From: Poronia punctata
Taxonomy: Eukaryota; Ascomycota; Sordariomycetes; Xylariales; Xylariaceae
Assembly (NCBI GenBank): GCA_022579005.1
Contig: MU401517.1
Location: 119,408-183,407 of the forward strand
Reading direction: 5' to 3'
DNA: 64,000 bases
A program made the translations under genes and the position numbers. A model generated the notes under the pieces. That model searched no databases and had not been told where the DNA came from. It saw nothing but the letters and a program-made list of their open reading frames with translations. Position 1 is the first letter of the stretch; each line of letters starts with the position of its first letter. Positions 1-36,554 of the stretch are shown here, piece after piece.

Positions 1-2495
1 ACAACGAGATTTGAGCAACAACTAATGGATGTTCATCCTTCGCCTTTGATGTCGGTAGCTTGGAATACTTGACACGGTATGCAGTATCTACACGTATATA
101 TGAGGCCATTACACGTATATCCTTTGGCAGAATACCTTGTTATCTAAAAGCGACGTTTTGGAAGTAGACAAGGGGAGAAGGTAGCCAGCCAGGCACGACT
201 GGTATTGACTCCGATTGAGGGGTTATCCTGTCGGACAGTTGGCCCAAGTCAGAGATGAAACCAAGCCCTCGGAGGCAGAAACAGAAACACGGATACTATG
301 ATACTACACAGTAGTTTTTGTACCTGGTACCCTTGGCGCCTGGGATGCTACCACCTCTAGTCTAGCCGCTGCCCTAGATGCAGTCAGAGGTGAGAATACA
401 TAAGCCCTACCGGCTTGCAAGGTCCAAACCAGGCCAGTAATGCTGGTAACGTCGTGGTGAGTCACAAAACCCCGATTCAATTCCCACTGAATCGCAGGAT
501 CGTGAAGACACATGCGAACCCGGGAATTGGTTCGTCTGATTGATCAAATTTCTTTTCCACTTCTACTTTGGACATTTCTCCTGTCTTATTTTATTCCCCT
601 GTTCTACTCATAGCTCGGGTCGGGGATGGAGGATCGGGCGGGAATAAATGGATGGATCTTACTGCGTGATACTTCTGCCAACCGACTTGGGCTTGGAAAA
701 GAATAACCTACCTGGACCATTCTGAAATATCTTCTTACAGCTGGTCAAACTACCTATGTGTAGATACTTGATGAATAAAGGGACATCCTGAATTGAAAGA
801 GGCAGAGTCGTCCTCGATGCAGTACTAAAAGGCATCATGCGCTCTGCCACGCCCTTGCAATAACAAGCATGCTCATGCTCATGCGCATGCGCATCGGCGC
901 ACTGAGCCACCCAAGCTAACCTACACGGGCCAGCATAGGCTTTCTCCGTGGGGTCCAATCCCCGCTGGGGTAAGCAAATGCGAGCTCCACGAATACCTTA
1001 GGGTAAGCCCTATGAAGTACTCATATTTTCAGTTAATGTTGTACGCAACAACGAGCAGAGAAAATCATAGTGTACGAAAAGCCTCTTTCCGAGATGCTTC
1101 CTTCTCGGATCCCATACCAAGTGCTGCAAGAGATCGATCGTGAGGTTTACAGGGACGCGTTACGCGAGTAATGGATGGATCTTGATAGTGCCAGGGTAGA
1201 CGTGCTTGTACAGATGTGGCTACCTGTACATGTACTCGTAAAATGCTATGCATGTTTTCCGACCGAACGGAAACCGGGGTTTGTTGTCCACACCCTACTG
1301 TACTAACGTACGAGTAGAAGCATTACTTTGCCTTGGGAAATGTCCGTCTATTGAGCTTCCATTCTTTCTAGCATCGACTGAAAACAGGCACATCGTTGAG
1401 AAAAATTTACCTTTGCGCCTTAAGTTCATAACTGCTGTATTTTTGTGCGCTTTGAGACGAATTGGAGCCACCGAAATGGCACATCTCAGCTCTGATGGAC
1501 TCCGGGCTCAGATGAAAAGAGATTTTATGAATGTGTACTGTGGAAAGTACATACTCGTGGTAGATTCCTAAACCAGCTGGCCGAGAAAACCCTCCAATAA
1601 TACGTGTACTCAGTAGGAGAGATGGGGCCGAGCACCTGCAGTTGCAACTCGCAAGGCAACCTTGAACTCCACAGGACTCAAACCACCGATATGCTCACCA
1701 ATCTATAGCAAGGTTAATAGCTTACACTAGTCTAACCTAGCATCCGCTACCTTTTTTATTGACTACAACAAATGGTCTATTACGAGATTAATAATCACAG
1801 AGTCAAATCAACAGAACAGGCTGCAACTTATGCTTGTTCTGCTAACCTACCACGTACCTATGAAAACGAGGGGTTGCTCTAAATACACGTAGAGAGAGAG
1901 CAGCAAAGTGCATAACCTAGTTGGTCAGAGAATACTCGTAAAGCAGCAGGATTTGGAGATGCCTCAACCCAGTTAATTCTGTATACCTACAAGGTACCGG
2001 CAAGAGGATAAATACACCGGAATAAACCTAACCTGGTCGCTTGCCTACCACACTAAGTCCGATTGTAGAAAGGCGTCAGTATTAGGTATGACTCACACCT
2101 CTAAGCCCCAAGAATACCTACATGTACAGACCTTTGTCACTCGCTAACTGATTTCCTTGCCGGATTGCCCTGTTACAGAGAGCAATTCTTACACAATCAT
2201 GCTGTGGAGTAGGTAAGAAGGGACTTTGGTTAGACACACGCAGATACCCACCCCAGGAACCAATATGGGTCTTTTTGTGCCCACGTTTTCTGCGAACCAG
2301 TTGCAAACTCAAAATATCATTGGCTGCATGTCCTGGCTGGACCCCACCTGGTCTCACGCAATGTGCCCTCTTGTCCCACCACAAGGCACCTACCTATTAT
2401 TACTTGTACTCCTGCTGTAAAATGGCTAGGCTGATGCGTCCAAAAATCTGGTTGCCTGAAAAAAAATACTAAAGGCACTGATTCCCGCGTCCACA
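1..2495. other. Intergenic region, no gene recognised
   Basis: About 2.5 kb without a convincing coding region. Open frames here are short, lack recognisable motifs and overlap on both strands. The stretch holds several copies of the word ACGAGTA/TACTCGT (near 1227, 1310, 1552 and 1932) and two TGASTCA sites (458-464 and 2089-2095). The right part is presumably the cpc-1 promoter. Confidence 0.6.
2089..2095. promoter_or_regulatory. TGACTCA, candidate CPC1/GCN4 binding site upstream of cpc-1
   Basis: A perfect TGACTCA palindrome lies about 460 bp upstream of the first cpc-1 uORF. TGASTCA is the recognition sequence of GCN4/CPC1 bZIP dimers, and autoregulation of cpc-1 through such a site is known in Neurospora. 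A second copy, TGAGTCA, sits at 458-464. A 7-bp match is weak evidence alone; position makes it credible. Confidence 0.45.
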
Positions 2496-2555
2496 CACGT
2501 TTTTCCCTTTCTTTTTCCCCTCCTCAACCCCCTCCTTTTCAATAAAAATTTACAC

Positions 2556-2618
2556 ATGAATCTGTCTACACGTCGCTACGATGCGCTAAATAACCCAACC
2601 CCGTTTCCCGCCTACTAA
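2556..2618 (+). promoter_or_regulatory. cpc-1 uORF1, 20 codons
   Basis: ATG at 2556 opens a 20-codon frame ending in TAA at 2616-2618. The start context is weak (C at -3). A second ATG inside it, at 2581, encodes only two codons. In Neurospora cpc-1 the first uORF is also short, and it acts like GCN4 uORF1: ribosomes translate it and resume scanning. The same role is inferred here from order, size and position. Confidence 0.75.
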
Positions 2619-2712
2619 GAGCTCTTGTAGCCAAACCGCCAACATTCAGTCATCAAAGAAAAACAATTTATTCTCCACTCCACCTCATTCAGCTCTTCCT
2701 TTCCAGGTTGAA

Positions 2713-3219
2713 CTGAACTTAGAAGAAGCTATCTCCAGCTCTCACGCAAGTTCCCAACCCTCGCCCACCATACCCACGCAAGACTTTTCAGTCTTCACCA
2801 CGGATTCCACTCAGTCACCATGGCCTCCCTCCAGTTCCCAGAGCCAGCCGGCACCATCCGCGCAACAGCACAACTATCAGCCCCCGCCACAACAGGACTT
2901 TGTCTTGTTCGACTCACCCCGACCCGAGAGGACAACCGTTAGCCGAACCGCCTCATCGTCTGCTTCCGCAGCAAACTTTGGATCACTTAGCAGCAGCAAT
3001 AACGCTACCACCAAGAAGCTTGATTCGAGCACCCAAGCCGCCCGCGTGCAGCAGATACTCCAAGCAACCCACCGGTTTAATTCTCTTGTACAAACCCAGA
3101 CATCGCCGCAACAGTTTTACGCGCCCTTATCCGCCCCCAACGCGGCTAATAGGCAGCCATTTGTTGCCCGTCCACCCGTCCCCTTGTTCTCGGAAAGTAG
3201 TCAACAACCCCGGCCCACC
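2713..3219 (+). other. Conserved-type non-AUG N-terminal extension of the CPC1 frame
   Basis: The cpc-1 frame stays open from 2590 (after TAA at 2587-2589) to the main AUG at 3220, with no AUG in frame. Its translation is protein-like: Ser/Gln/Pro-rich with hydrophobic-acidic patches such as TQDFSVF (about 2776) and QQDFVLFDS. The best near-cognate start by eye is CTG at 2713, with G at -3, just ahead of LNLEEAISSSH. Initiation there would add 169 residues. Conserved in-frame extensions reached from non-AUG codons upstream of uORF2 are described for Pezizomycotina cpc-1 homologues; this locus fits that pattern. The exact start codon is inference. Confidence 0.65.
2820..2942 (+). promoter_or_regulatory. 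cpc-1 uORF2, 41 codons including stop
   Basis: ATG at 2820 in a strong context (CACCATGG) opens a 40-residue frame ending in TAG at 2940-2942. It lies in a different frame from cpc-1 and overlaps the N-terminal extension. It begins 201 nt after uORF1 and ends 277 nt before the main AUG; I found no other AUG in either interval. This is the geometry of GCN4-type delayed reinitiation, with uORF2 as the inhibitory element that ribosomes bypass when eIF2 ternary complex is scarce. Confidence 0.8.
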
Positions 3220-3972
3220 ATGGATCTTCAAGGTAAACATCCGCCTGCTCCCTTCCGCAGACGGACCCAAAGCTTACAAGCGCATAAATCAGACGCGATG
3301 AATGACCTCCAAGGCTTCATGCCTTACGGGCGTGGTACTCCGACTGCTTTCCCCTCTCCAATTGGAGGCGGTGACGTCGACGTCAGCCCTGCTCCCAGTT
3401 CTGTGCACATGGGTACGGTCTCGCCAGTTGAGCTTCTCCTACAAGATCAGTACTCGGCGCCAAATTCCTCTGCTTTCACAAACTTGACAACGCCGTCGAA
3501 CTATGGCGAGTCACCCGGGTTTGAAAACTACGAAGTCTCCCCGAACTTTGGCGACTTTGAGGCTGGTTCTTCGGACAACTGGTTCCCTCTGTTCCCGGAG
3601 AGTAGCGAGGCTGATCAGCTCACTACTCAGCCAAAATCGCCGCTTCTGGCAAATGAGGAGCTGGATGTTTCCGACACTCAATCTTCCCCTCGTCCCAAAC
3701 CAAGCAATTCGCCACGGTCTCAAAGCCACGGCCGGCACTCTTCCGTGTCGGGTGTGAACGCTCGACGACGTGACAAGCCTCTTCCTCCCATCATTGTCGA
3801 AGACCCTAACGACACGGTGGCCATGAAGCGGGCACGGAATACTCTTGCTGCTCGTAAGTCTCGAGAGCGCAAAGCTCAGAAACTCGAGGAACTGGAGGAG
3901 CAGATTGCGAAGCTAGTAGCGGAGCGCGATCATTGGAAACGGGTTGCTTTGAGCCGACCTGGCGGTGCATAG
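3220..3972 (+). CDS. cpc-1: Cross-pathway control protein 1 (GCN4-type bZIP activator)
   Basis: Nuclear transcription activator of amino acid biosynthesis genes under amino acid starvation. The 250-residue product starts at an ATG in good context (ACCATGG). Its C-terminus carries a GCN4-class bZIP: basic region MKRARNTLAARKSRERKAQK followed by a short leucine zipper ending in VALSRPGGA. Upstream is an acidic, aromatic cluster (DNWFPLFPE) like the GCN4 activation segments. Length is close to the Neurospora protein as I recall it (about 270). There is no intron. Control appears mainly translational, through the two uORFs in the leader, with a possible longer isoform from the in-frame extension. 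The downstream neighbour, reading toward it, is a GCN20 homologue from the same pathway. Confidence 0.93.
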   Translation: MDLQGKHPPAPFRRRTQSLQAHKSDAMNDLQGFMPYGRGTPTAFPSPIGGGDVDVSPAPSSVHMGTVSPVELLLQDQYSAPNSSAFTNLTTPSNYGESPGFENYEVSPNFGDFEAGSSDNWFPLFPESSEADQLTTQPKSPLLANEELDVSDTQSSPRPKPSNSPRSQSHGRHSSVSGVNARRRDKPLPPIIVEDPNDTVAMKRARNTLAARKSRERKAQKLEELEEQIAKLVAERDHWKRVALSRPGGA

Positions 3973-5235: not shown

Positions 5236-7643
5236 CTAATGAGCCTTGACAACACCAGCCTGATCAGCCTGAGCAGCGATTCTCTTCTTATACTGCTGGA
5301 CATCACCGGGGAACTTCCAGACCGTTCCGTTCTCGCATACCCAGAGACTCTTGCATACCGTCTGCAACATGGTGACGTCGTGAGAGACCATGAGGACGCC
5401 GCCCTGGAACTCGTTGAGTGCTTCTGACAGCGCGTCCATGGCCTCGATATCGAGATGATTGGACGGTTCGTCGAGGACAAGGATGTGCGGTTGCGTGAGC
5501 GCCAGACAGGCGAATGCGACACGAGACTTTTGACCTCCGGACAAGAACTCCATCTTCTGGAGACCCGTCGTGCCGGTGATGCCGAAGGAGCCTAGATATC
5601 GGCGGTACTCCTCGTCGTTGCGGCCCGGGTAGTTCTTGGACATGAAGCCGACGGCACTCGTATTCAGGTCCAGAGCGTCCACGTGATGTTGGGCGAAGAA
5701 GCCGATGCGGAGTCGCGAGTTTTGTGATATCGTACCTTGGGTAGGCGACAACTTGCCGATGAGCAGCTTTAAGATGGTGGTTTTACCGGCACCGTTGGGT
5801 CCCACGATACCGATACGTGAATCTAGCTGCACGTCCAGATCCACATTTTTCAGCAGGATCTGATCCGGGCTATATCCAAAGGTGACGCCGGACATCTGCA
5901 CGATAGGAGGTGAGAGCTTCTCCACTTCCGGGAACTTGAACTTGACGCTGTACTCTGCCTCGGGGGGCTGGAGGATGGGCATACGCTCCAACTTCTTGAT
6001 ACGGGACTGGGCTTCGGCGGCTTTGCCGGCATTATAACGGAACTTGTCGATAAAGGCCTGGAGATGGGCACGCTGGGCCTGGTTGTTTTCGTACTCCTTC
6101 TTCGCAATCTTCTTCCGTTCTTCCTTGGTGGCATAGAAAGACTCGAAGTTGGCACCCCTGTAGTAGTCGAGGCGCTCGGAATGCTGGTGAATGATGTCGG
6201 TCGCTACCTCGTTTAGGAAGGCTCTGTCGTGACTGACTACCAAGATGGTGCTCGGATATGTCTGAAGGTAATTCGATAAGAAGGTAATGGAAGGGACGTC
6301 CAACATGTTGGACGGTTCGTCCAGAAGAAGTAGGTCGGGCTCGCAGAAAAGAGCTCTGGCAAGGGCCAAACGCATACGCCAACCACCCGAGAAGGTCTTG
6401 GTGGCGTACTGTTGTCGTTCGGGGGAGAAACCCAGACCGGCGAGAATAGAAGCCGCTCGAGGTTCGGCCTTGTCTGACTCCATCTCTGCAAGCTTGGATT
6501 GAATATCACCCAGCTTCTGATCAAGCGCATCTCGATCACGATCTAGCTTGGCCGCATCAGCCGAAGTATCAGCCATGGACGGCCTCTGTGCTTCGATTTC
6601 GGCTAGACGGTCGGTGATTTGCTGGGATAGTTGTCAGTATCAATGTATCATAATATAATAAATGCAGGTTGCTCCATACCTTTTGATCTCGGATCAACAC
6701 TTTTCGCCAGACGTCGGCATCCAAGACAGCCTGTAAGGCGCTCGTGTCGTCTCCAGTAATCTATAGTAACCACGGTTAGTTAAAACTGAACTGCGAATCA
6801 TATGGAGCGTGCACGGTTTACAATGCAGGGGCCGTTTTGTTTACTTACTTCTTGTTCGACATGCAGAATAGAGATATGAGTAGGAATGGCCAACTCTCGT
6901 CTCGACAGAGCCCTGAGTAGGGTAGATTTACCCACACCATTGTTACCAACCAAACCGTAACGATGACCATAGGCAAGGGTCAAGTCAGTGCCGGTCAGAA
7001 TCCTAGTGCCGCCAATGCTGACATCGACGTTCTCGAGCTTGATGTCCTTGGTCTTGGCAGTGGCGCCGCCGATACCCAGCTGGAGCGGGTTGACAGCCAT
7101 GTAGAAATCTTCGTAAGACTGTGACTCATCCTGGTTGATGAGTCGTGAAGCCTCGTACTCGACAGTCTTGAACTGTTTCTTGCTCTGCTTGGCCGCGATC
7201 TTCCGCTCGGCCTTTTCTAGCTTCTTGCGGTCGACCTTGGACTCGACCTTGCGCGTGTTGGCAGACTCGAGATCGACACCGCCCGTGGCGACGGCCAAGG
7301 TAGAAGACATGTTCCGCTGTGAGCCGACCTGGTACGCATGATCCAGACGCTTGACGGCCGATAGCCCGCGGCGTTCCGCGTTAGTCCCGTTGGCCGCTTC
7401 GTATTTATCGACCCATTTCGAGACCAGGGCACGGATCTTCTCCTCTTGTGCCGGAGTATCGACGTTGCCAGAGGCGGAAAGAAGGAGCTCGGTTATGGCC
7501 GCAGCAGCTTCAGATAATGGAGATTGGTCTGAACCCTCGTCATCCTCGTTCCATGCTGTCGACGCATGTCTGAGGTACCCGATAGAGTATTCAGAAACGA
7601 CAGGGTCGATATCTGGCAAGACCGCTCTGATGTCGGCTTCCAT
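5236..7643 (-). CDS. gcn20: ABCF ATPase, GCN20 family
   Basis: Cytosolic, ribosome-associated ABC protein without membrane segments; with GCN1 it promotes GCN2 activation by uncharged tRNA. Three exons: 7643-6849, 6760-6680, 6621-5236. Introns are 88 and 58 bp with GTAAGT and GTATGG donors, giving 753 residues (yeast Gcn20 is 752). An N-terminal GCN1-interaction-type region of about 200 residues precedes two ABC domains. ABC1 has Walker A GNNGVGKST (end of exon 1), signature FSGGWRMRLALARAL and Walker B LLLLDEPSNMLD. ABC2 has GPNGAGKTT, FLSGGQKSR and LVLDEPSNHLD. The start is the first ATG of the open frame. ABC1 has DEPSNMLD where DEPTNHLD is usual. It converges on cpc-1, the effector of the same pathway. 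Confidence 0.94.
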
Positions 7644-8324
7644 TTCCACTGTGTACTTGTTTCAACTTGCAACGCTATTCGCTTTTATTGATGACAATAT
7701 TAGGTCTAATCGGCAAGTAAGACCCCAGAATTCAAGAGCCTGAGTTCCTTGTCTTGTAGTCTTGAAGAATAACGAACAGCGAGTATCTCACAACATAAAG
7801 AGTGATATGTTCATCACCTCTTGGAGAAACCCCCCCACCAACAATAGTGGGTCGTTGAAAGTTGGTACCTGGGACGGACAGGCGGGTAAACTTCGGCGCG
7901 GGCGGCTCTGATTGGCTGATAAATCCTCAGGAGTCAGTCGGGCTTGCAGCTTGCCGTCTCCTCCTGTCTGTCCTGTTCGCTACTGAGGAATCCTATGTCC
8001 CAAAACTGAGGTGACCGTGGGTTCCTTACTTACCTAACCCAAGAACAACTTCAACTTCTTCAACTTCATTTCTCTCACACTTATTCTATCGGATATACCC
8101 CTGATGGACGGCATTCCTTCATCGACGTAAAACACGTTTGGGAACATGATGAGGCGAGGTTAGCGTTTGTCTAACTCGTAGGTTATTAATTACTCACCAA
8201 GCACGAAAAGCATTTGAGATTTCCTATCTTATTACCTACCTACGAGTAGTGTGATGCCGTAACTATCCAACATCTCTAACCAAAGACATGAAAGTAATGT
8301 ATGTATTCAAGTAAGAAGTATTGA
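7644..8324. other. GCN20 promoter region
   Basis: A 680-bp gap between the GCN20 start and the 3' end of the next minus-strand gene. No coding region is visible. It contains a run of eight C at about 7831 and pyrimidine-rich stretches. No TGASTCA site is seen here. Confidence 0.5.
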
Positions 8325-10217
8325 TCAATAGTCAAAGCTTTCAAAGGCGACCTCCTCTCCTTCCGTCCATTGTAAGAGACTTTTCATCATCTCCGGCCCC
8401 GTACAACAGAAATACTTTCTCCTTCTCTCGTCCCCTGTCTCGAACAGCACATCATTCCTAGTCATCCTGCCTTCTACGACGGCAGCCCCAAGATTTCTCA
8501 CCTCAGCCAAGAGATCACCATCATCCTCCTCTTTATGATCTGGCACGACGCCCGTTACAAAGAGCTTCGTAACGGATCCGAGGCCGCCAATCTCGTTAAA
8601 GGCGTAAACGGCAAGGGGTAAATCCTCGGCACGTAAACTCCACAATACCCTCAAATTCCTCCCGTCCGTCTTCCTCATTAGCAAGCCAGGTGCCTGGGCC
8701 AAAAGAGGCGTGATGCCTACTCCGGCAGCAACAAAGACGTTTTGTTTGATTTCCCTCTCGACAATGCGGAAGTCATCAACACCACCGAAGCCGAGGACCG
8801 GGATCTCGAGCGGAACACGCATATTCCATTTAGCGAGAAGCGAAGTCGCTGGCCCGTGTTTCCTAACGATGATGTCGAACTCTTCTGCTGCTGCGCCCGT
8901 CGCACTCTTGCTATTACTATTACTACTACTAACAGTAAACGTGCGCACGAAATCATCATTCAGACTCTGCGGATCGTCGTCCCGCATATGCGCGTACCCG
9001 TTATCCAACTCGGGCGAGAAATCCAAAGTGACATGTTGACCGGGCATCCAAGAAGAATGAGAAGCCATCTCGCCTCCAATCCTGAATGTATAGCGTGAAA
9101 TAGTAGGTGTGAGGACCTGTCTATTCAGTAGTGTCGCAGTAGCAGTAGAATTGGTGTTGACAACAACCCCTTTTTCCACCTCGCCCGCAAGCCGTCTCAC
9201 AGGCGGGTTATACGGCGAATAATCAATAACAGACCCACGAAACGGTAATCCGTCTCGCACGAACCTAGCCTCGGAGACGTCGATTTGCACGGCAAGTTTC
9301 GCATGTGGCATAACCTCCGCCGCTTGTTCTCCCGCCAGAATAGTCGTGCGGCCAGTCAGATAGAGCACATCGCCCGTTTCGAAGTCCGGGATGACGAGAC
9401 CGGCTACCGGGTTCTCGGCGAGATTCCCTAGGGTCTGATATAGACGGTTTCCCGAATATTCCGGGTATATCAACGATAATACCCCTCCTCCTCCTCCTCC
9501 TACTCCCTCCTCATTCCTTAACACGCGCACGAACCCCGGAGCCCCACCGCGATGATTCACATCCATGCTCCCATCATCACCGTATTTACTAGCGATGAAG
9601 AACAAGTCCGCCTTTCCGATAAGATCGAGAGCTCGGCGGGGCAATGGAAGAGCAGAAGAGACGAGTTCCGGACTCGGCACATGAGGTACGATATGCTTCT
9701 TATTCAAGTACTTGGGACAATTCCCCAGCGCCTCTTCCACCACAAACGCCATCTGCAAATTCGCTACCCCGGTAGTAGTAGTAGTAGTAGTAGTGGCGGT
9801 TCCTTCGGCTTCCGTCATCGTCGCGCCAGCAAGAAACCGACCCGCGAGCTTGAGCCTGTCGCGGGTTCCCAGATCAATCGAAAGTGCAGCCATGATTTTG
9901 CCTTGGGGAGATCCGCGTGCGGCCTGCTGCAGCTGCACCACGGGATCGAACCTCGCATCGACAAGCGCATTCGCCACCAACACGTCTTCTTCTTCGTCTT
10001 CTGCTGCCAAGGGACGACAGAAACCCGCTTCGCCGCCCCATACCGTGACCCAGGGACGGCCTTGGTCGTCGAGAGTGCCGAATGCCACGAGAGGCGAGAC
10101 GTATACCCTATAGGCATGTGCTTGCTTTAGGCCCTGGACGGTCGGGTTACCACGGCTGGTGGGAACCCCGAGCATTCGCTGCACGGCTTGTTCGCCGGTA
10201 TGCCATTGCGTGATCAT
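8325..10217 (-). CDS. Split-barrel flavin protein fused to ferredoxin-reductase domain
   Basis: Probable soluble flavin oxidoreductase, 630 residues, single exon, starting at the first ATG (MITQWHTGEQ). The N-terminal half (about 1-330) is a pyridoxamine-phosphate-oxidase-like FMN split barrel, with the family stretch RLYQTLGNLAENP and FETGDVLYLTGR. The C-terminal half (about 360-630) is an FNR-type FAD/NAD(P) unit: VRTFTVSS for FAD, FVAAGVGITPLLAQ for nucleotide binding, and terminal FCCTGPEMMKSLL ending in FESFDY. Some fused relatives continue into a 2Fe-2S ferredoxin domain; this one stops before it. Two coding microsatellites add low-complexity runs: GTA repeats (9772-9795) give poly-Thr and CTC repeats (9484-9501) give poly-Gly. 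Substrate unknown. Confidence 0.85.
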   Translation of the reverse strand: MITQWHTGEQAVQRMLGVPTSRGNPTVQGLKQAHAYRVYVSPLVAFGTLDDQGRPWVTVWGGEAGFCRPLAAEDEEEDVLVANALVDARFDPVVQLQQAARGSPQGKIMAALSIDLGTRDRLKLAGRFLAGATMTEAEGTATTTTTTTTGVANLQMAFVVEEALGNCPKYLNKKHIVPHVPSPELVSSALPLPRRALDLIGKADLFFIASKYGDDGSMDVNHRGGAPGFVRVLRNEEGVGGGGGGVLSLIYPEYSGNRLYQTLGNLAENPVAGLVIPDFETGDVLYLTGRTTILAGEQAAEVMPHAKLAVQIDVSEARFVRDGLPFRGSVIDYSPYNPPVRRLAGEVEKGVVVNTNSTATATLLNRQVLTPTISRYTFRIGGEMASHSSWMPGQHVTLDFSPELDNGYAHMRDDDPQSLNDDFVRTFTVSSSNSNSKSATGAAAEEFDIIVRKHGPATSLLAKWNMRVPLEIPVLGFGGVDDFRIVEREIKQNVFVAAGVGITPLLAQAPGLLMRKTDGRNLRVLWSLRAEDLPLAVYAFNEIGGLGSVTKLFVTGVVPDHKEEDDGDLLAEVRNLGAAVVEGRMTRNDVLFETGDERRRKYFCCTGPEMMKSLLQWTEGEEVAFESFDY

Positions 10218-11373
10218 GGGTATTAAAGTATCACCCAAAAAATCAAGACAAAAAACAGTAAGATTTCCGATGGTAAGTTGTACCGTAGTTTAACGGACTT
10301 ATGATATATTAAGATATATACAAGATATCGCGACGTAAGTAACAATCTACCTACCCAGCTAGCTCACTCAGGCATTCTTATACCTCCCTAAAGTAAGTAG
10401 GTACTTACCTCCCTATTCAAGAAACCTGTCAAAGCCAGGGCGTACAATCCCCCTACCTATCCGAACTATTAGCGTCTTGAACCTTAGCAATACACTCATG
10501 TATGGATGGCATCACATTTATCCCATCCCACCCAAATTTCCGAATGTCCGATAACGATGACTAAAAAAAAACCGTGCATGAACATGAGTCTTATTACATC
10601 TCCGGGTTATATCGGCATACCTAGTCTGTTCTAGACCAGGCAAACAATTTTCTTTTTCCGCATACATACAAAACCTCAGCTGACGGTCTTACATAGCCCG
10701 ACGTTGGTCTCCAAACACCGCTCGTCCTTGCTTTTACATTTTTGACGTCTTTTGAACTTATTCATTCAGTATTACCAAGTAACTAGGCACACCTAGGTTT
10801 GCTGTAGTTTACCTAACTCTAGTATCTGTGTCCAGTATCTGCAGACTGCCGCCAGGTTTTACTAAAGGCGCCTTGCAGGCTGACGCACCGCCTGTTCACT
10901 CGACATGCATATTAATAATCATGTACGTGTATCTATAAGCAAGTCTTTGGCTAGGTACATACCCTCAAATGCCTCCATACCTGCGATATAGATACGCAGA
11001 TGTAGGTCACATACATACATCTTTTAATTACTAGCAATTGAACCATAGGAGGAAAACTACACATGTGCTTCGTATAGATCTTATTATTCGTCAGTCGGAT
11101 CATGAAATAAGTCTCGCAGCAACCGACAGTTGTGCTCGCTAAAGATAGTTTTCATGGTGTACATCAGTGTCGAATCCCAGGTGACACATGCTTAAAAACC
11201 CCCCCGCCAGACGGTTATTTTTCACACCAGAAAATACCGGTTTCAAGAACCCCCGCAGCCAAATAATTCGTTCCCGTCCATGGCCACATAAACCCTAAGC
11301 CTCAAAAGCAAGACCTTTGCTACAAAACAACGATGGTATATAGCCGTAGCACCGTATTTCTAACGTCTTTGAA
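10218..11373. other. Intergenic region, nothing recognised
   Basis: About 1.15 kb between two minus-strand genes. AT-leaning, with several TACCTA/TAGGTA words (10350-10410, 10780-10800) and no coding region longer than chance. It probably holds the 3' UTR of the Kch1 gene and the promoter of the oxidoreductase. Confidence 0.5.
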
Positions 11374-13202
11374 TTAATTATAATATCTCGAAACATCGTA
11401 ATCGTATCCGTTACCATAGCCTCGCTGGGTGGCATCCATTCCTGCGTTTCCTGGAGTGTATACATCCCTCTCGTGATAAGGTTGAGGTACCGTCATGTTA
11501 CGTTGCGGCGCGAAGCGTTGTGGGCGTGTCGCGGTTGGGATGGCCGTCGCGCTGCGTGGCGGGTATATTGGCCGAGGTGGCCCGCGCCTTTGGTACTCAG
11601 ATGGTGCCGGACTCAAACGGCTCTCGTTGAAGATTGGCGGTCGATTTTGTGGTCCTTGTCGGTTCATTGAATATGTCGACGACCCAAACCCCTGTGCACC
11701 AGAGACCGGGGCCCGTACGCGCTCGGGCATGGACGGTAGCGTATCGGGAGAAGGCAGCGCATTTATTGACGGCCGCTGATCGAAGCCCCTACTGGATGGA
11801 GGGGTCCCGATCCGGGCCCCTTCGTACTCGTGGAAGTCGATATTTGGTAGTGTCGGCTGGGGAGAAGGGGGTCGCCCGAAGCCCATTTCCGCTGCACCAT
11901 CTACCAACGGAGCACGCGACGAATAGCTGTCAGTCGACGCCATCGTAGCTCTGGTATTCTGCCGAGAGGGCATGGGTCGTTTCTGATCCAGAGAGCTCAG
12001 CTCGATAGTCCCTGGTGTCCCCGGACGGGAGGTGTAAGCGGGAAGTGTGGACACGGTGTCGTTGCGGTGCAACATTGGCATCTCGGGCAGCTTGTCGCCT
12101 TTCTCAAGATCCATCATGTTCGGCAAGGTTGCCTGCCGCTCCAGACGTGGTTGGCCGCCTGGTCCCCTGGATGCCTTGTCCTCGGCCCTAATACGCTTCA
12201 GATCTTCTTTGGCCAGAGCCTTATTGATCTTTTTCTTAACGATGCTCTTCAGCCGCTTATTGACTTTTCGTTCACAGTAACCATGCAGGCCACCGTCTTG
12301 AAGGGGGATATAATGCCAGAGGAAGAACACGTAGAACAGCGCGCCGATCAAAAGAAAGAGGAAGGAAAATATCCAGATGATCAAGGTAAACAGCATGCCC
12401 GAAAAGACCACCGCCTGTTTGCTGTTAGTCGCCGCTAGGGCTTGAAAATTGGCAAAAAATCCCTCGATCGTGCTACCAATGGACGAGGCGTCCTTCGGCG
12501 TGAGGTCCGATCTATACAAGCCATAGAGCGATAAGGAGTTGATGACTTGACGAGGGGCAGAACAAAGAAGGACCCGTATCCAAGCTACAAGAGAATTAGA
12601 ACCCCATATGCAACATGACGGTGTCCGGTACAGACGAGTACTTACACTGTAAACTAAAGTACGAAAAGAGAGCGATGTACTCAGCTCCTTTCTTCGATTT
12701 GGTCAATTCTGCGAAGACAAGAAAGCGTCTCCAACCTTGACCCTTCCCAACTTTTACGCTTTCCAGGCGTACAGCGAGATTATCAAGATAGCATTCGGCA
12801 ACGCTTCCGCGTCTCATGACGCGCCAGGCACGAACATGTTCGAACATAAGGTTGACAAAAGTGGCAATGATTGTGCCAGCAAAGATCCATTTTGTCTGGT
12901 CGAAGCTGAGAAGCTGGGTAGGTTCAATGGAGGAGGACCACTGGTCGAAAGCCAAAAGGTTGATGGCGGTAAAGATATCGACTCCATATACAACCAACGA
13001 AAGTATGATTGAAAAGTATAAATAGCCGTAGGCCAAGTAGGCGAAGACCGATCTGGGTTTGAAATCTCGTAGGCTCTGCAATCACGTCGTTAACAATTAC
13101 CGTCTGTTGTGTGAAGCGATCCAGTCAGTTGCTTACAATGGCATCCCACTTCTGTTCAGGTGTAATGTCGGCGGCCTTCCGTGAGGTTCCTAGGAACATC
13201 AT
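11374..13202 (-). CDS. kch1: Kch1-type low-affinity potassium transporter
   Basis: Plasma-membrane protein of the fungal Kch1/Prm6 family, linked in yeast to K+ influx during pheromone or stress responses. Three exons: 13202-13137, 13075-12646, 12584-11374, with two 61-bp introns, giving 568 residues. Two adjacent in-frame ATGs open exon 1. Hydrophobic segments: about residues 30-60 (VFAYLAYGYLYFSIILSLVV), 75-95 (WIFAGTIIATFVNLMF), a shorter one across the second splice, and a strong pair in exon 3 (FSGMLFTLIIWIFSFLFLL and ALFYVFFLWHYIP). The family context LWHYIPLQDGGLHGYCERKV follows. The last 270 residues are a Pro/Ser/Arg-rich cytoplasmic tail. Family assignment is from the membrane core; the tail is poorly conserved. 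Confidence 0.82.
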
Positions 13203-16749: not shown

Positions 16750-17475
16750 TGTCGGGGGCCTGGGGCGGTTGCTACCTAATGTACTTACCTAACCTGGTAA
16801 CCTAGGTACCTACTTAGCGGTTACTCGATATTTTTGCGTGGGAAGAGGGAACTCGAGTTCATTTACTAAATTTACAATTATACTCTGTGGCACGTAGTTG
16901 CATGTTCAAGTGTTATTATGGATTCTCAACTTGACTCTCACTTGAAGATAAGTCCATGACTCTATTCTTGCGTGACTGACATACCCTTTACTATTTATTA
17001 CGAGTACAGTGGGAGCTCTGTACGTGCGTAGACAGTACCATAGCTGCCGCGGCTGCCTGGTAGATTATCTGGTGTGGCTGCCCACGTGGCGTACAGTGCA
17101 TCACTGCGTCATCACTACTAACTTCTACACAGTACGACCATCTTCCCTAACCAATCCGACGATCATTACAAACAGTTACACAACAAACACTAACGTACAT
17201 CAGCACCACGAAATCCAGATACAATACTTATAATTTTGTGCTTAAAACTTTCCGGTATACTGTCCCATCCCGCATCAAAGCTTCTTTTTAAACAGACGAT
17301 AAAACATAACTACGCACGTCGATTTGAGATCTAGGCACACTAGTTACAGGACACTCAGTTTCGTGCCAAAACCGTTGATACCCCCTCAGTCAACACCAAC
17401 CATTTCCAAGCCCGACGCGCAAACTGGAACGTACATCGTACATCATCTTCGGTCGGCCCTGAGACACAGAAAGAC
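16750..17475. other. Short intergenic region, nothing recognised
   Basis: 725 bp between two plus-strand genes. It has TACCTA-type words right after the upstream stop (16780-16815) and no coding signal. It must include the promoter of the LAMTOR2-like gene. Confidence 0.5.
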
Positions 17476-18168
17476 ATGTCTTTAGCGGCACCTACACCAC
17501 CTTTACTTCTCACCAAACGCCTGGCTGGGTTTCTACAAGCCAACCCATCCCCTCATATCCATACGAGCCTCCTCGCTACCTTATCCGGCAAAGTGCTCGC
17601 CCACGCTTCCCCGCACTCTTTAACCACATTGCGCACGCAAGCCACCGTCGCTGCTTCTCTCTGGGCCTTGTATTCCAGCCCACCCGCGACGGCGACGACG
17701 ACGACAGCGACAACGACTACCGCGAACTTACAACACGCATTACCGGCCGAGTCCCCCGCACATTGGCCCGGCGACGCGACATCGAGATCAATAACGTTTC
17801 AGCTTACCGGTGCCGTCTTAGTCATCAGGCTGTTGAAATGCGGCCTCTTGTTTATATGTATTGGCCCGGTGGCTGAGCTGCCCGATTCCGCTTCTGTGAG
17901 GCACCTACACCAACAGACCCGGCCAGTGCAAGCATCGCACACCCATCTCGAACCACAACCCAGCCCGCTCCTAGGCTCTCCCTCTGAGGTGGAAAGCGTG
18001 GTTAGCGCAGGCGCTGCCACCACGACGAGCGTTGCCACTGCTACTAGCATTGGTGCTTCGGCTGTGGTAGTAATGAGGCGCCATGCAGAAGAGCTGGCTC
18101 GATGGTTAAATGACAAGCTTGGTTCTCTGGGCGTACCGGATGAAATGGGAACGTCCGAATCACGGTGA
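17476..18168 (+). CDS. Roadblock/LC7 domain protein, LAMTOR2-like
   Basis: Single-exon ORF of 230 residues. The pattern fits a Roadblock fold: an opening helix (LTKRLAGFLQAN), a strand pair around TSLLATLSGKVLAHAS, a helix (TQATVAASLWALYSS), a second sheet (ITFQLTGAVLVIRLLKCGL then LFICIGP), and a closing helix (MRRHAEELARWLNDKLGSLG). This is the order in LAMTOR2/p14, a scaffold of the Ragulator/EGO complex that anchors Rag GTPases and TORC1 at the lysosome or vacuole. Two low-complexity inserts (Thr-rich near residue 75, and about residues 140-190) lengthen it well beyond the roughly 125-residue animal protein. Such inserts are common in fungal genes. Identification is by pattern, not by search. 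Confidence 0.6.
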   Translation: MSLAAPTPPLLLTKRLAGFLQANPSPHIHTSLLATLSGKVLAHASPHSLTTLRTQATVAASLWALYSSPPATATTTTATTTTANLQHALPAESPAHWPGDATSRSITFQLTGAVLVIRLLKCGLLFICIGPVAELPDSASVRHLHQQTRPVQASHTHLEPQPSPLLGSPSEVESVVSAGAATTTSVATATSIGASAVVVMRRHAEELARWLNDKLGSLGVPDEMGTSESR

Positions 18169-21091: not shown

Positions 21092-22776
21092 ATGATGAAC
21101 TCAAAGACTGCCGCCCTCGTGGTGGCCTTTACGGCCGCTACCAGCGTCTCCGCCCAGGGTGCCGGCACCCTGACCGCTGAGACTCATCCCAAGATGACCT
21201 GGCAGAAGTGCACGGCTCCCGGCAGCTGCGAGACCGTCAACGGTGAGGTCACCATCGACGCCAACTGGCGCTGGCTCCACGACAGCGAGGGCACCAACTG
21301 CTACACCGGCAACGAGTGGGACGCCACCCTCTGCCCCGATGCCGACACCTGCACCTCCAGCTGCGCCATCGACGGTGCCGAGTACGAGGCTACCTACGGT
21401 GCCAGCACCTCGGGCGATGCCCTGACCCTGCAGTTCGTCACCGAGGGCGAGTACTGTAAGTGGACAAGCTCTCTTTGATCTGAACTGGGATTCTGACAAA
21501 ACCTCTCACAGCCACCAACATCGGATCTCGTCTGTACCTCATGAATGGTGAGGACAAGTACCAGATGTTCTCTCTGTTGGGCAACGAGTTCACCTTCGAC
21601 GTCGACGTCTCCAACCTCGGCTGCGGCCTTAACGGTGCCCTGTACTTCGTCTCCATGGACGAGGATGGTGGTCAATCCAAGTACGACGGTAACGAGGCCG
21701 GTGCCAAGTACGGTACCGGATACTGCGATGCTCAGTGCCCCCGTGATCTCAAGTTTATTGACGGCAAGGTAAGTGATTCCGTCCCCGTCCCCCGTCTCCG
21801 TCTCCGGCTCCGACTCGGACCGGACCGGGGCGGACCCCGCATTGAGTCTATCGCAGCGTCTAATTCTAATCTTCCAATCTAGGCCAACTCCGATGGATGG
21901 GAGCCCTCTTCCAACGATGAAAACGCTGGTGCCGGTCCTCTCGGCTCTTGCTGCTCTGAGATGGATATCTGGGGTAAGTGACTAAAAAGAGTGCCCCCCG
22001 GCCGCTGATGGGGATCCGAGCGCTGACCCAATACAACCTGCAGAGGCCAACGGCATGTCAACTGCCTACACTCCCCACCCTTGCACTGAAGTCGGCCAGA
22101 AGTCGTGCGAGGGAGACGAGTGCGGTGGTACCTACTCTGATGACCGCTACTCCGGCTGGTGCGACCCCGACGGATGCGACTTCAACTCTTACCGCCAGGG
22201 TGTCACCGACTTCTACGGACCCGGCGCGACCGTCAACACGGACTCGGTGTTCACCGTCGTCACTCAGTTCATCACCGGCGACGACGGCGCTCTCGCCTCC
22301 ATTAAGCGTTACTACGTACAGGATGGCAAGGTCATCCCCAACTCGGAAAGCACCATTGACGGTGTCTCCGGCAACGAGATTAACGAGGAGTACTGCGCTG
22401 CCCAGAAGACCGCTTTCGGTGATACCGATGACTTCGCCAACAAGGGTGGCCTCGCCCAGATGGGCAAGGCTCTGGAAGGCGACATGGTTCTAGTCATGTC
22501 TCTCTGGGACGACGTAAGTGATAATAACATGTCGGACAAGGCAGTATGGCTCGATTCGCTAACACATTCTGTCTCTAGCACGCGGCCAACATGCTGTGGC
22601 TCGACAGCTCTTTCCCCGTCGATGCCGATGCGTCCCAGCCCGGCATTGCCCGTGGCGCTTGCGAGACCTCTTCCGGTGTCCCCGCCGACGTCGAGTCGGA
22701 GCAGGCCTCCAACACCGTCATCTTCAGCAACATCCGCTTCGGCCCCATCAACTCTACCTTCGAGGCCACCTCGTAA
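21092..22776 (+). CDS. cbh1: Secreted GH7 cellobiohydrolase, catalytic domain only
   Basis: Extracellular cellulase releasing cellobiose from cellulose chain ends. Five exons: 21092-21455, 21512-21768, 21883-21973, 22044-22513, 22579-22776. Introns are 56, 114, 70 and 65 bp, giving 459 residues. The signal peptide ends near SVSA-QG (after residue 21), giving the N-terminal Gln typical of CBHI. The catalytic motif EMDIWEAN gives nucleophile E233, D235 and acid/base E238; it is split by intron 3. Other GH7 landmarks: [16 protein letters not shown] and [14 protein letters not shown], with abundant cysteines. The protein ends right after the catalytic domain ([12 protein letters not shown]), with no linker or CBM1. 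Codons are strongly C-ending, as in highly expressed genes. Endoglucanase is less likely given the exo-type loop content. Confidence 0.93.
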
Positions 22777-24860
22777 ACGGTCTCTGGGATTTCCCAGCCG
22801 TGCGTCGCTTCTCCTTTTAACATTTGTCCTGTCGAGACGGATGATATCCATCTTACAGGACAGACAAGCAAAGCGGCAGCGCAAATCGTGGCCGACGATG
22901 CCCTTGAGCTAGATGGTCGAACGAGATGAGTTTGCCAGAGAGGAATAGACGGACGGGAAGGCAGACAAGAGCACCCGGCTGAAAGTTTTGTACGAGGAGC
23001 TTCTTGTTCTTCTTTGCACATATTTGTTCGCAATTCTATTGCGTAGTACACATAGCTTCTCCTCATGTAGGATCAAGAAAAAAAAACATCTTAGACTATA
23101 CTCTGATAGGGTATCCCATTCCGTCTGTTTTATGAATTTGTGCTGAATCAAGTGCGTCCGGGTTAAAGCAGGATGTAACAGTGTTTTGCCTTGGCGGTAA
23201 AATTCGGAAAGAAAAGTTTATATCCGACGACGGGATTTGTTTCGTTGCAAGACGATGTGTGTTAGAATCATCGAACCGCTGATGACTCGGACCCGGACGA
23301 CTAACTTGGAGTGACACAGTCTTGGCATGATTGTAAACATTTCAATTTATTTTCCCAAGTATTTTGTACACTACATCACAATACACTCCTCTTCCTCTCT
23401 ACTTGCTAGAGACTTGGAATAGGGGGCGTTATCATTCAATCTCACATAGCTATCTACCTACCTACCTACGCCCCATCCCTCTCTCCTCCCGGTTAACCCC
23501 CTGCGTCTCATCCAAACAATCATAAAGGACAGATATTCATTCTTCACTTCCCTCCGGAAATATCAAAACGTCTTCTTTTTTTCCCTCTAAATTACCTACC
23601 TTGAAAACAATGTGCTACATGACATACATATCTTTCTTTTTTCTTTTCTTTCTTTTTCGTTTCAGAAAGCCAATGAAAAGTCTTCGATTTAAGCGATGGG
23701 CTTTTACTTTGCGCATCGGTGGACAAGGGGGGGGAACAGGGGAGAGGGAAGAAAGAAGAAAGAAAGGAAGGGGGAGGCTGGTTTTGCTTGCTTGCTTGCT
23801 TGCTTAGGAGGGGACACACTCTACAACCGAAGTTTTAGGTTCAAGTTAGTGCGAGGAAGGAAGGGGATATTCACTAGGCTAAAAGGAAAAAAAAAAAAGG
23901 AGTGCATATAATACTACTTTAGGTACTTACTTACTTACTTACTTATTGTACGCTGCCCGGTCTGTTGGTTACAAGTTTTGAGGTACACTTACTTACCTAA
24001 TCGACGGACTGTTTCAAAAAAACGCGTTCATGTGTGCTTGGATCTAAAAGAAGTCTTGAAAAAACTTTCCAGATCGTCGATTATATAGAGGGATCGTGAT
24101 AGACTGTTACATATACAAACGAGAGAGATCAGATTGCTTGTGAGCCCGGAACTGGGGGAGGTTGGTTGGTTGTCTCGTGACAAAAGATTACTTGGCGGAG
24201 AGGTCTTTTTCTTTTCCCGGGCTTCCTTTCCTTTCGTCATTGTCTTTTGCGTTCTCTAGGTAGCTCTAACATACACAAAATGTAATCTGGGTACGGTACA
24301 CAGTAGGTAGGTAGGTAGTCAAACTTTTCTGCGTGTAGGGACAGGAACAGGGACAGGGACAGGGACATCCTACATTATTTTTTCACCGGTGCCACGTGGT
24401 TAAAGTATATACATAAAATCTACGCTTTACTTGCACATTTTTGGGGGGGTAATTCTTTCCCCTTTTATATACGCATCTATCTATGTTGCGAGCCTTTTTC
24501 CTTTTTTTTTTTTTTTCACCCCGTCATTAATGTCCGACGATAACAGATCTAACACAATCCTACATGAGAGAGATGATAGGGCCTAGGTAAGTAGGTAGTA
24601 GGCAGGTAGAGACCGATATTTTTCCAGAAATGTCCTTTTCCTAGTTTTCAATATCAAGGAAAGAACTCTACCCCATACTTTATAGATTGCATACCGTAAG
24701 TAAGTAGGTAGGTAGAGAGACGACTTATTATAAAAAAGAGACATGTGTATACAACTTTTAAGTTTTACTTACCTATCTGTCCCCCTTTTTTACTACCACT
24801 TATAATCTTATCCTTTACTATCGTCTTGCAAACTAAATCTACTCTGGCTTTCTAACAGCC

Positions 24861-34116: not shown

Positions 34117-36554
34117 TCAATGCATCTCCATGGCACGGCGGTTTCTCCCCTGGAGTTGACGGAACTTCTTGTCAAGCAGCTCGTGCTGTTTCTTGGCTTG
34201 CGCCCAGACCGTCTCGGCATCCTCAACCGACATGAGTGGCGTGCTGCCGATCGCCGGCGACGGTGCGTTCTCGGCATGGTCGTAACTCCCGTACACCGCG
34301 TCCGACGGGTTCCCGGCCGGCGACGCATTGTAGTCATCCGAAGCGCGGCCCGAGTATAGCTTCCGCTGATCTTCGGACCCGTCGGTCGGTGGGTAGATCC
34401 ATGGCGCCAGTTGCTGCAAGTTGACGTTCTTAGTGAAATTGGAACTCGCCCCCAACGCCTTATAACTGCCAAGATGCAGGGACGGCAAGACGTGCTGGTT
34501 GATGCAACTTATGGCTTCTTCCCGATGCATCTTGCTGACCGGATCGGTCGGGTAGTTGTTGGGGCCAAGCGGGAAGAAGGACGGCATCCCGTTCGGCACC
34601 GCTCGGTTCTTGACCAGGCTGAAGCCGCTCGCAGGTGCATAGCGGGGAGCCGAGAAGGCCGTCGGTCGGTCACTGTCGGCTCGGAGCCGGTCTTGGAGCT
34701 CCAAGAAGAGGTCAGCTTCTTCTGGCGTGAGGTTCAGTAAACAGTCTCCATTCGGCGTCAGAAGTACACTATGCCCGTTGACGACTTTGCGGACAGGCTG
34801 GAAGGCGCTGAGTTTCTCTTCGTCTTCTTTGGTCACAATCGATTTGAGCGTCGGCGGCAGAGAGACCACTTCACCCGCGTTGGCATCCCCATTGGCATCG
34901 AGACGATGTGTTGGTGGCTTGAAGAAGCTGAGTTCCTCCAGCTCCGGCAAGGTACCGTCGCGTCTCAACGCCGAGAAGACGTCCCGCAAAAGAGGAATCT
35001 CACCCACATCTTGCTCTACCGGCTGCTCCTGCGTCGTTTCGGGCGCGCGGTTGACATAATCCGGCGTCAGTACCGTCGTCTTAGTCGACTCGTTCAACTT
35101 AATAGACGTATCGACAGCGGCAGGGCTCTTCGGTGAGTCGGGCATAACCTTGCCCTTTTGCTCCTTTACTTTTGATGTCTCTGCCCCAGGCTGGCTGACC
35201 TTTAAATCCTTCCGGGAATCGCCATCGGCTGGCAGTTTGCCGTTTTCCTTCTTCAAAGTAGGTTTGTCCTCGGCAGGTTCAGAAGCGCCCGGTGTTGCTG
35301 GTCTGCTAGATGCTCTGCTCGCAGTCGTCGGCTTCTTTTCCTTCTTCTGCTTCTTCTTTCTGCCCACAATGGGCGCAATCTCGACTTCTGGTTCAAATGT
35401 TTTGACCTCGGCTACTTGGGCAGCCGCTCCCTTGGAGGCTTCTTTTCGTTGCTTGCGCTGCTGACTCTTGGTAGTGGAGCGGGCTGGCAGAGAACCAATC
35501 TTCGACGGTGGTGGTGAGCTAGTCCGAGATGCCGACACCGAGGCACTAACTATCGACGCAGTATCGGATACGATCTCACTTCCAGGCGTCATCGGTCGGT
35601 GGGCTGAGCTTGCTGCTGCAGCCGAACGGATAGACGTCACAGCGGGAGGCGCAATATTCGTTGTTGGGGCTTCAGTCTTGGGAGTTTGGACTAATCGAAG
35701 TGTCTTCGGGGCTGCTTTAGTCAACGGAGATGATACAGATGCTGTTGTCGGTGTCGGTAACGCCGAAGCCGCTCTGCTAGCCTGCTGGCCGGAAGCGCTA
35801 TCCTGGGCATCGACCTTGGCGCCTGTGGCTTGCTGTTGAGCCGGGGAAGGACCGGTGGCAGCGGCAATGTCTAAAATACCAGGCACGGGCCGCTTAGCTG
35901 ACCTTCCCGACTTGGTTTCAGTCACGGCCTTGTGCGAAGCATCGCCGCCAGTTTTCTTGCCAGAGGCCGTCTTGACAGCCTGCGCCGACTTTGAAGACGT
36001 AGGAGCGGCTACTTTGGAGGGCGTGGCCGTCCTCACCGAGTCGAGTGCGGGAAAATCTTCTTCCTGGAGCAGTTTCCCACTTGCTTGAGAAGACTGGGTG
36101 GCAATGTCTTGGGCTAGCCCTGATGCATTAGCTAATTCTTTAATGCTCCGTTTGGCATCGTTTTTGCTATCCTTTTTAGTGTCATGTGTTGTATCACTTT
36201 TAGTAGCATCCCTTTCCCCCGCAGAAGATCCTTGCTTGGCTTTGGCTGGGGTGGGCTTCACAGAAGCCTTGGGCGCTATTGGTGTGGCCGGCTGGAAGGC
36301 GGTAGTAACACCGGGCCGTCCTAGGTCCCCCCGGGACTGCGGTCTATCGAAGGACAGGGGGGTGTGGGTCCGCTCGGGTGAGAAAACTGGGGGATGTGCA
36401 TGGGCCAACCCGAGATCGAGACCCGGGGGTAGATGAGGTGGTGCGATATTGCCGGCACCCCCCAAGAAACCTAGAGACTCGGGCGGATCCGAATCATCCG
36501 AGACTAGCGCATCAACCGCGGACGAAGCTTCATCGAGAGGGATAAGGTCGTCGT
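34117..36554 (-). CDS. Probable C-terminal half of NOT4 (or separate low-complexity protein)
   Basis: Large minus-strand ORF with an acceptor (ACTCTAG) before 36554 and no ATG at its head, so an upstream exon is required. It opens with an acidic segment (DDLIPLDEASSAVDALVSDD) and PPHLPPGLDLGLAH, then a long Ala/Ser/Lys-rich disordered part. A more conserved end includes NGDCLLNLTPEEADLFLELQ and a final coiled coil (AETVWAQAKKQHELLDKKFR). Filamentous-ascomycete NOT4 proteins are, as I recall, often around 1,500 residues, with a similar C-terminus. A donor in the upstream NOT4 exon (GTGGGT at 37196) has matching phase 1, which would give a 642-bp intron, unusually long here. A missing small exon or an independent gene remains possible. 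Confidence 0.6.

What the first reader, a model, noticed from the sequence alone, without database searches (positions are those of the whole stretch)
2556..3972. cpc-1 keeps a two-uORF leader and a 630-nt AUG-less N-terminal extension
Seen directly: uORF1 (20 codons, weak start), uORF2 (40 residues, strong start), no other free AUG from uORF1 to the main AUG, and the main frame open without a stop from 2590. The extension translates into a Ser/Gln/Pro protein with acidic-aromatic patches resembling activation segments, including the 277 nt after uORF2. Established: GCN4/CPC1 reinitiation control, and conserved non-AUG extensions in Pezizomycotina cpc-1. Inference: CTG at 2713 (G at -3) is the likely start, giving an isoform with 169 extra residues whose initiation would bypass uORF2 and may be insensitive to starvation.
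Basis: partly seen in the sequence, partly recalled or inferred. Interest (0 to 1): 0.85.

Follow-up and report, generated by a model that had tools for sequence, protein, structure and literature searches.

The report
Fungal cpc-1 gene, non-AUG extended isoforms
This is the amino-acid-starvation regulator gene cpc-1 (the GCN4 counterpart) of a Xylaria-like fungus; it very probably makes longer versions of its protein from start codons other than AUG, as already shown in Neurospora, so it is mostly a new example of something known, with one start site that looks older and more widespread than reported.

Summary
The locus is cpc-1/GCN4 of a Xylariaceae-like fungus. The CPC1 frame is open from 2590 to the stop at 3972, and the part before the main AUG (3220) is a conserved protein segment. 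This architecture (two uORFs, AUG-less in-frame extension, near-cognate starts upstream of uORF2) is published for N. crassa and 100 Pezizomycotina (Ivanov et al. 2017, PMC5487733).

(1) uORF1 is almost certainly the 3-codon AUG-CGC-UAA at 2581-2589, not the 20-codon ORF at 2556.
(2) The main ORF carries a probable 60-nt in-frame intron (3233-3292): CPC1 is 230 aa.
(3) CUG 2713 is one candidate start among several. AUA 2770 and ACG 2800 match published NCC7 and NCC8, and an upstream AUU at 2644 has the same signature: Ile with A at -3 in 31 of 31 aligned sequences (window plus 30 uninterrupted ORFs), against at most 5 in 25 shuffles. It would add 192 residues.
(4) Published N. crassa profiling argues against 'insensitive to starvation'.

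Translation in this species is inferred: no RNA data, and no DNA of related fungi was found here, so codon-substitution rates were not computed.

The parts
2581..2589 (+). Probable true uORF1: AUG-CGC-UAA (3 codons with stop), A at -3, in frame with CPC1; its UAA is the in-frame stop that bounds the extension
   Evidence: AUG census; published uORF1 is 3-6 codons in 100 analysed homologs; 17 of 18 relatives' uninterrupted ORFs tested allow exactly one out-of-frame AUG-NNN-stop at the matching place
2556..2618 (+).
2590..3219 (+). CPC1 frame open upstream of the main AUG (210 codons)
2644..3219 (+). Conserved N-terminal extension (192 residues if started at AUU 2644)
2644..2646 (+). AUU, candidate upstream near-cognate start (A at -3, C at +4); probable counterpart of N. 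crassa NCC5
   Evidence: Ile with A-first preceding codon in 31 of 31 aligned sequences, shuffles at most 5; counterpart of NCC5 is inference
2713..2715 (+). CUG, counterpart of published NCC6 (G at -3)
   Evidence: Leu in 137 of 141 aligned models
2770..2772 (+). AUA, counterpart of published NCC7 (A at -3)
   Evidence: Ile in 138 of 150 aligned models
2800..2802 (+). ACG, counterpart of published NCC8 (A at -3, G at +4), best context
   Evidence: Thr in 146 of 146 aligned models
2820..2942 (+). uORF2 (40 codons plus stop), strong context, -1 frame relative to CPC1
   Evidence: 19 of 273 fetched protein models start with MASLQ, the first residues of uORF2
2791..2838 (+). Conserved patch VFTTDSTQSPWPPSSS of the extension
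2884..2913 (+). Conserved acidic-aromatic patch PPQQDFVLFD of the extension
3169..3189 (+). Conserved patch RPPVPLF just before the main AUG
3220..3232 (+). Main AUG and coding part of the first exon of the annotated-type CPC1
   Evidence: Met in 119 of 119 aligned models
3233..3292 (+). Probable 60-nt intron (GTAAAC...CAG), in frame and without stop
   Evidence: 27 of 119 models skip it, 92 keep it; 18% identity between conserved flanks; five metagenomic ORFs end soon after the main AUG
3293..3972 (+). Rest of CPC1, with WxxLF-type motif (3580-3594) and bZIP (Pfam match 3826-3924)

Best explanation
This is the cpc-1 (GCN4) gene of a Xylariaceae-like fungus with two layers of translational control. 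Ribosomes that translate the 3-codon uORF1 (2581-2589) resume scanning; with enough amino acids they reinitiate at uORF2 (2820-2942) and miss the main AUG, in starvation they pass uORF2 and start at 3220 (230-aa CPC1 after removal of a 60-nt intron). In addition some ribosomes start at in-frame near-cognate codons before uORF2 (AUU 2644, CUG 2713, AUA 2770, ACG 2800) and make CPC1 with 192, 169, 150 or 140 extra N-terminal residues, avoiding uORF2. The extra Ser/Gln/Pro segment with conserved acidic-aromatic patches probably adds activation or docking surface. Shown here: sequence, protein conservation, start-site signatures. Inferred from N. crassa: initiation, reinitiation, response to starvation. 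Inferred from sequence alone: function of the extension.
For: Extension conserved as protein at the level of the main ORF's activation part. Columns at NCC6, NCC7 and NCC8 are Leu 137/141, Ile 138/150, Thr 146/146. A fixed Ile with an A-first preceding codon occurs, among residues 12-210 of 26 uninterrupted ORFs, only at 2644 and at NCC7; the conserved Ile at 3055 has such a predecessor in 4 of 26. uORF1, uORF2, their lengths and the -1 frame of uORF2 fit the published family. Published for N. crassa: NCC5-NCC8 initiate in vitro, CPC1-frame footprints upstream of the main AUG, more of them relative to uORF2 in 3-aminotriazole.
Against: No transcript, footprint or peptide data for this species. 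No DNA of relatives, so dN/dS was not computed (searches found none). Codon usage is unexceptional (53 of 300 random stretches score as high). In N. crassa the non-AUG reporter activity was under 1% of the main AUG in vivo. The paper calls NCC5 only sporadically conserved and its coding signature reaches 5' only to NCC6. The window is more diverged after uORF2 than relatives are among themselves (0.52 against 0.75). Many annotated relatives carry an AUG-bearing first exon.
Confidence: 0.84

Rival explanations
1. A spliced upstream exon supplies an ordinary AUG to the extension, so no non-AUG start is needed.
For: By a rough classification of the 86 annotated models among the 120, 42 join an AUG-bearing exon between the Ile site and NCC8, 39 reach further upstream, 3 start at uORF2's AUG, 2 are other. 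The window has a pyrimidine-rich CAG|GT acceptor-like site at 2703-2708. Five pairs of close relatives share first-exon sequence; the first exon of P0018 matches window 2134-2184 weakly (E 0.005) and the MTHTS of P0032 matches 2088.
Against: The predicted first exons mostly do not resemble one another, and the window stretch matching P0018 has no Met there and an internal stop. In 30 metagenome-sourced ORFs the extension and the stretch upstream of the Ile codon are uninterrupted; three of these (P0053, P0061, P0103) lack the intron at 3233-3292 and so are probably transcript-derived (inference). In N. crassa the frame runs to the mapped transcription start without stop and the leader is translated at uORF1 and uORF2.
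Confidence: 0.1
2. Extended CPC1 is made by +1 (or -2) frameshifting from uORF2 into the CPC1 frame (raised by Ivanov et al. in their discussion).
For: uORF2 is in the -1 frame relative to CPC1, as in all homologs of that paper.
Against: It does not explain protein-level conservation upstream of uORF2 or the fixed near-cognate codons with A at -3. No shift-prone site was sought here.
Confidence: 0.02
3. Special to this species: uORF1 lies in the CPC1 frame, so readthrough of its UAA would give an AUG-started CPC1 with 212 residues before the main Met once the UAA is decoded as an amino acid.
For: AUG 2581, CGC and UAA 2587 are in frame with CPC1, with no further stop.
Against: In the 17 relatives with a compatible uORF1 it lies in another frame (11 at one offset, 6 at the other; in-frame cases could not appear in that sample, since their stop would end the ORF). 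Residues between uORF1 and the Ile codon are not conserved. UAA is usually a tight stop (general knowledge).
Confidence: 0.01
4. The upstream frame is open by composition or conserved only as RNA and is not translated.
For: C-rich, stop-poor leader: 27 of 5000 shuffles stay open; codon usage not exceptional.
Against: In-frame protein conservation equals or exceeds that of the main ORF's activation part before 2943. Published dN/dS of the extension 0.35, or 0.285 beyond the start-site region, and CPC1-frame footprints in N. crassa.
Confidence: 0.03

Closest known systems
Neurospora crassa cpc-1 and the 100 Pezizomycotina leaders of Ivanov et al. 2017 (mBio e00844-17, PMC5487733)
   Same: bZIP gene; short uORF1; uORF2 of 35-70 codons in the -1 frame; no in-frame stop between uORF2 AUG and main AUG; near-cognate codons NCC6-NCC8 upstream of uORF2 (all).
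   Different: Here uORF1 is in frame with CPC1 (frame 2 in N. crassa), so the open frame ends at uORF1's UAA (2587-2589) instead of running to the transcription start; NCC7 is AUA rather than AUU; the AUU upstream of NCC6 looks conserved across many relatives, while the paper calls NCC5 sporadic.
Saccharomyces cerevisiae GCN4
   Same: bZIP activator under uORF-reinitiation control (per PMC5487733); WxxLF-type motif in the main ORF (resemblance recalled).
   Different: Two uORFs instead of four (recalled) and an N-terminal extension, which the paper found absent in Saccharomycotina.
Mammalian C/EBP isoforms (comparison made in PMC5487733)
   Same: bZIP factors with isoforms from alternative starts and a short regulatory ORF.
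   Different: Analogy only; no homology of the leader was tested.

Membership tests
Pezizomycotina cpc-1 with non-AUG N-terminal extension | CPC1-type bZIP protein | tested here: met
   Best relatives are named cross-pathway control protein or bZIP; Pfam bZIP_2 22.3 bits, equal to its cut-off as printed; bZIP_1 23.1, below its cut-off of 27.6
Pezizomycotina cpc-1 with non-AUG N-terminal extension | uORF1 of 3-6 codons with stop, in good context | tested here: met
   AUG CGC UAA at 2581, A at -3 but C at +4; the 20-codon ORF at 2556 would not meet it
Pezizomycotina cpc-1 with non-AUG N-terminal extension | uORF2 of 35-70 codons with stop, strong context, -1 frame | tested here: met
   41 codons with stop, GTCACC AUG G, frame_rel_main 2
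Pezizomycotina cpc-1 with non-AUG N-terminal extension | No in-frame stop between uORF2 AUG and main AUG; extension starts upstream of uORF2 | tested here: met
   No stop from 2590 to 3969
Pezizomycotina cpc-1 with non-AUG N-terminal extension | Conserved near-cognate codons NCC6 (CUG), NCC7 (AUU or AUC/AUA), NCC8 (ACG) | tested here: met
   CTG 2713, ATA 2770, ACG 2800 in conserved columns; assignment by alignment of proteins, the N. crassa sequence itself was not available
Pezizomycotina cpc-1 with non-AUG N-terminal extension | Extension under purifying selection in the CPC1 frame | tested here: inconclusive
   Conserved as protein; dN/dS not computed for lack of relatives' DNA
Pezizomycotina cpc-1 with non-AUG N-terminal extension | Translation from near-cognate codons in cells | not testable with these tools
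   No profiling, transcript or peptide data for this species
GCN4-type uORF reinitiation control | Starvation-dependent bypass of the inhibitory uORF | not testable with these tools
   Architecture consistent; function inferred from N. crassa

The most novel reading that the evidence does not exclude
The AUU at 2644 is an ancient start codon of CPC1, kept across Sordariomycetes with A at -3 and lying about 44-70 nt after a 3-codon uORF1, so the longest isoform begins upstream of the three near-cognate codons published as deeply conserved. The 2017 survey saw its N. crassa counterpart (probably NCC5) as only sporadic, perhaps because that stretch aligns poorly.
Probability: 0.55. Interest if true: 0.4.

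Novelty: new member of a known kind. Interest (0 to 1): 0.27.

Why it matters
It adds a Xylariales case to a conserved mode of control in which a master stress regulator makes longer isoforms from non-AUG codons beside GCN4-like reinitiation. It shows how automatic annotation struggles with such genes: relatives' models carry differing AUG exons or start at uORF2. It also points to one codon (AUU 2644, probable counterpart of N. crassa NCC5) whose role can be tested in a laboratory strain.

Tried and rejected
Codon usage: positive in the CPC1 frame but unexceptional (in that call the row 2943-3219 starts out of frame, its CPC1-frame value being the second number). Upstream AUG exon: predicted first exons of relatives searched in window 1-2643 gave only weak matches. 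Promoter motif: TGACTCA at 2089 is one of 10 in the window against 8.0 expected, so the count shows nothing; that it is a Gcn4/CPC1-type binding site is recalled. A neighbouring N. crassa locus tag (recalled) had no hit in the paper library. A search for GCN20 with cpc-1 gave two papers, seen as listing only. Structure prediction was not run because the extension looks disordered (judgement, no call). Rfam was not searched.

Selection to note: the anchor search used a pattern that already holds K/N/T before Ile, and one search took its positions from there; the claim therefore rests on alignments made without that pattern. The 30 uninterrupted sequences are those, picked by eye, of the 41 metagenome-sourced proteins with an NCC8-like pattern (of 126 metagenome-sourced among 273 fetched) that reach the Ile site; the other 11 start downstream of it. 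Of the 85 without that pattern, three have a long upstream part: P0204 and P0250 have N-Ile and K-Ile there, P0233 is divergent and ambiguous. One search used 26 of the 30 (4 came from a later search). That metagenome-sourced proteins are called without introns is inferred from their sources.

Full report
What is there. The window lies in a 45.05 Mb assembly of 573 contigs with one cpc-1 match. The CPC1 frame runs open from 2590 to the stop at 3972. The closest proteins are Xylaria, Nemania and other Xylariaceae models; 21 of the top 22 have 60-65% identity (the other 58%) over 92-100% of the extended frame (995 proteins passed, 120 were listed). I place the organism near Xylariaceae by this one protein only; one of those top models is labelled Lasiodiplodia.

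AUGs and uORFs. From 2556 to 3220 there are four AUGs: 2556 (C at -3, 20 codons plus stop), 2581 (A at -3, AUG CGC UAA), 2820 (40 codons plus stop, GTCACC AUG G) and 3220 (CCCACC AUG G). Ivanov et al. 2017 (PMC5487733; abstract and sections 6, 7 and 8 read; passages) report that all of 100 analysed Pezizomycotina have uORF1 of 3-6 codons and uORF2 of 35-70 codons. The ORF at 2581 fits. A further test: of 18 relatives' uninterrupted ORFs with at least 22 residues upstream of the Ile site, 17 allow exactly one out-of-frame AUG-NNN-stop, starting 15-24 residues before the Ile; the one without (P0046) has only 22 residues there. The background is 77 of 12655 positions. This shows compatibility, not the actual DNA. 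In the window the 2581 AUG is 63 nt (21 codons) before the AUU. The frame of uORF1 relative to CPC1 differs among relatives (one offset in 11, the other in 6; in frame in the window), so the stretch between uORF1 and the Ile codon seems not to be held in frame.

Conservation of the extension. In an alignment of 192 relatives the columns at the published near-cognate codons are Leu 137/141 (NCC6), Ile 138/150 (NCC7) and Thr 146/146 (NCC8), and the patches around W78 and QQDFVLFD are nearly invariant. Identity of the window to models P0001-P0024 is 0.54 (2644-2712), 0.70 (2713-2799), 0.77 (2800-2943), 0.52 (2944-3219), 0.18 (the probable intron), 0.64 (main-ORF activation part) and 0.86 (bZIP part). 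After uORF2 the window is more diverged than those models are among themselves (0.52 against 0.75), which I leave unexplained. Openness and codon usage are weak evidence by themselves (27 of 5000 shuffles; 53 of 300 stretches).

The upstream start. In 30 uninterrupted metagenome-sourced ORFs, pairwise identity is 0.06-0.20 at positions -30 to -3 before the Ile codon, 0.60 at -1 and 1.00 at the Ile; downstream it is mixed (0.07-0.69). The residue before is K 23, T 4, N 3, which share A as first codon base, the -3 position. Because the anchors came from a pattern with K/N/T before Ile, I realigned without it: 31 of 31 rows including the window have Ile with an A-first predecessor, against a best column of 5 in 25 shuffles of that stretch; NCC7 in the same alignment has 29 such rows of 31. 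Among residues 12-210 in 26 of these sequences, a fixed Ile with an A-first predecessor occurs only here and at NCC7; the conserved Ile at 3055 has one in 4 of 26. Of three further upstream-reaching sequences that my NCC8 pattern had missed, two agree and one is ambiguous. Over all models, many with doubtful first exons, the column is Ile in 83 of 106. Sordariaceae-like sequences (P0190 from Copromyces; P0170 and P0187 unnamed) have Ile in the same place (VKI or VNI), so N. crassa NCC5 (AUU, active in vitro) is probably this site. The N. crassa sequence is in a figure and a supplement and was not read; the paper calls NCC5 sporadic and sees the coding signature only as far 5' as NCC6. This is a lead, not a result.

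Intron. After MDLQ the frame passes through 60 nt (3233-3292, GTAAAC...CAG) of low conservation. Of 119 models 27 skip it and 92 keep it; 6 of the 27 are metagenome-sourced and may be transcript-derived (inference). Five metagenomic ORFs (P0193, P0198, P0204, P0214, P0250) end soon after the main AUG. I take it as an intron, giving CPC1 of 230 aa and extended forms of 422 (AUU), 399 (CUG), 380 (AUA) and 370 aa (ACG).

Alternatives. A spliced AUG exon is what many annotated models imply: by a rough classification of 86 annotated models, 42 join one between the Ile site and NCC8, 39 reach further upstream, 3 start at uORF2's AUG, 2 are other. Five pairs of close relatives share such sequence, but most first exons do not resemble one another, and the window's best match to one (P0018, 2134-2184, E 0.005) lacks its Met and holds a stop. 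Frameshifting from uORF2 and readthrough of uORF1 explain less.

Mechanism. As in N. crassa: reinitiation after uORF1, inhibition by uORF2, and near-cognate starts that avoid uORF2. Non-AUG reporter activity was under 1% of the main AUG in vivo, so abundance is uncertain. The function of the extension is not known; its conserved acidic-aromatic patches suggest activation or docking (inference).

Novelty. Three searches of the held library list the 2017 paper and its commentary (PMC5676045, abstract seen) as the direct work; other listed papers were seen as listings only. In those listings I saw no report of the AUU site as conserved across Sordariomycetes, which is a narrow check.

Noticed in passing
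5236-7661, minus strand: Next to cpc-1, tail to tail, lies an ABC-F ATPase in two open frames (5236-6633 and 6798-7661). It is closer to human ABCF1 (383 bits) than to yeast Arb1 (348 bits), so it may be the Gcn20-type factor (by exclusion, inference), which would put two general-control genes side by side.
   Followed up: partly
2085-2184: TGACTCA (2089-2095) upstream of the gene, inside ATGACTCACACC; five relatives' gene models begin MTHT, the same reading. It may be a conserved CPC1-type site taken for a start exon; TGACTCA is not enriched in the window (10 against 8.0). A CTAAC...CAG stretch at about 2143-2180 looks like an intron end.
   Followed up: partly
2944-3219: The extension after uORF2 is more diverged in this species (0.52 identity) than among 24 relatives (0.75), including columns nearly invariant elsewhere.
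   Followed up: no
21986-22912, plus strand; 11374-12702 and 37144-39435, minus strand: Glycosyl hydrolase family 7, a KCH-type fungal potassium channel domain, and an RRM plus RING-type zinc finger protein (Not4-like combination, recalled).
   Followed up: no
8325-10289 and 34117-36570, minus strand; 17344-18168, plus strand: Three open frames (654, 817 and 274 codons) without a Pfam match at E 0.001; 10 of the 14 frames of at least 250 codons were scanned, cpc-1 included.
   Followed up: no
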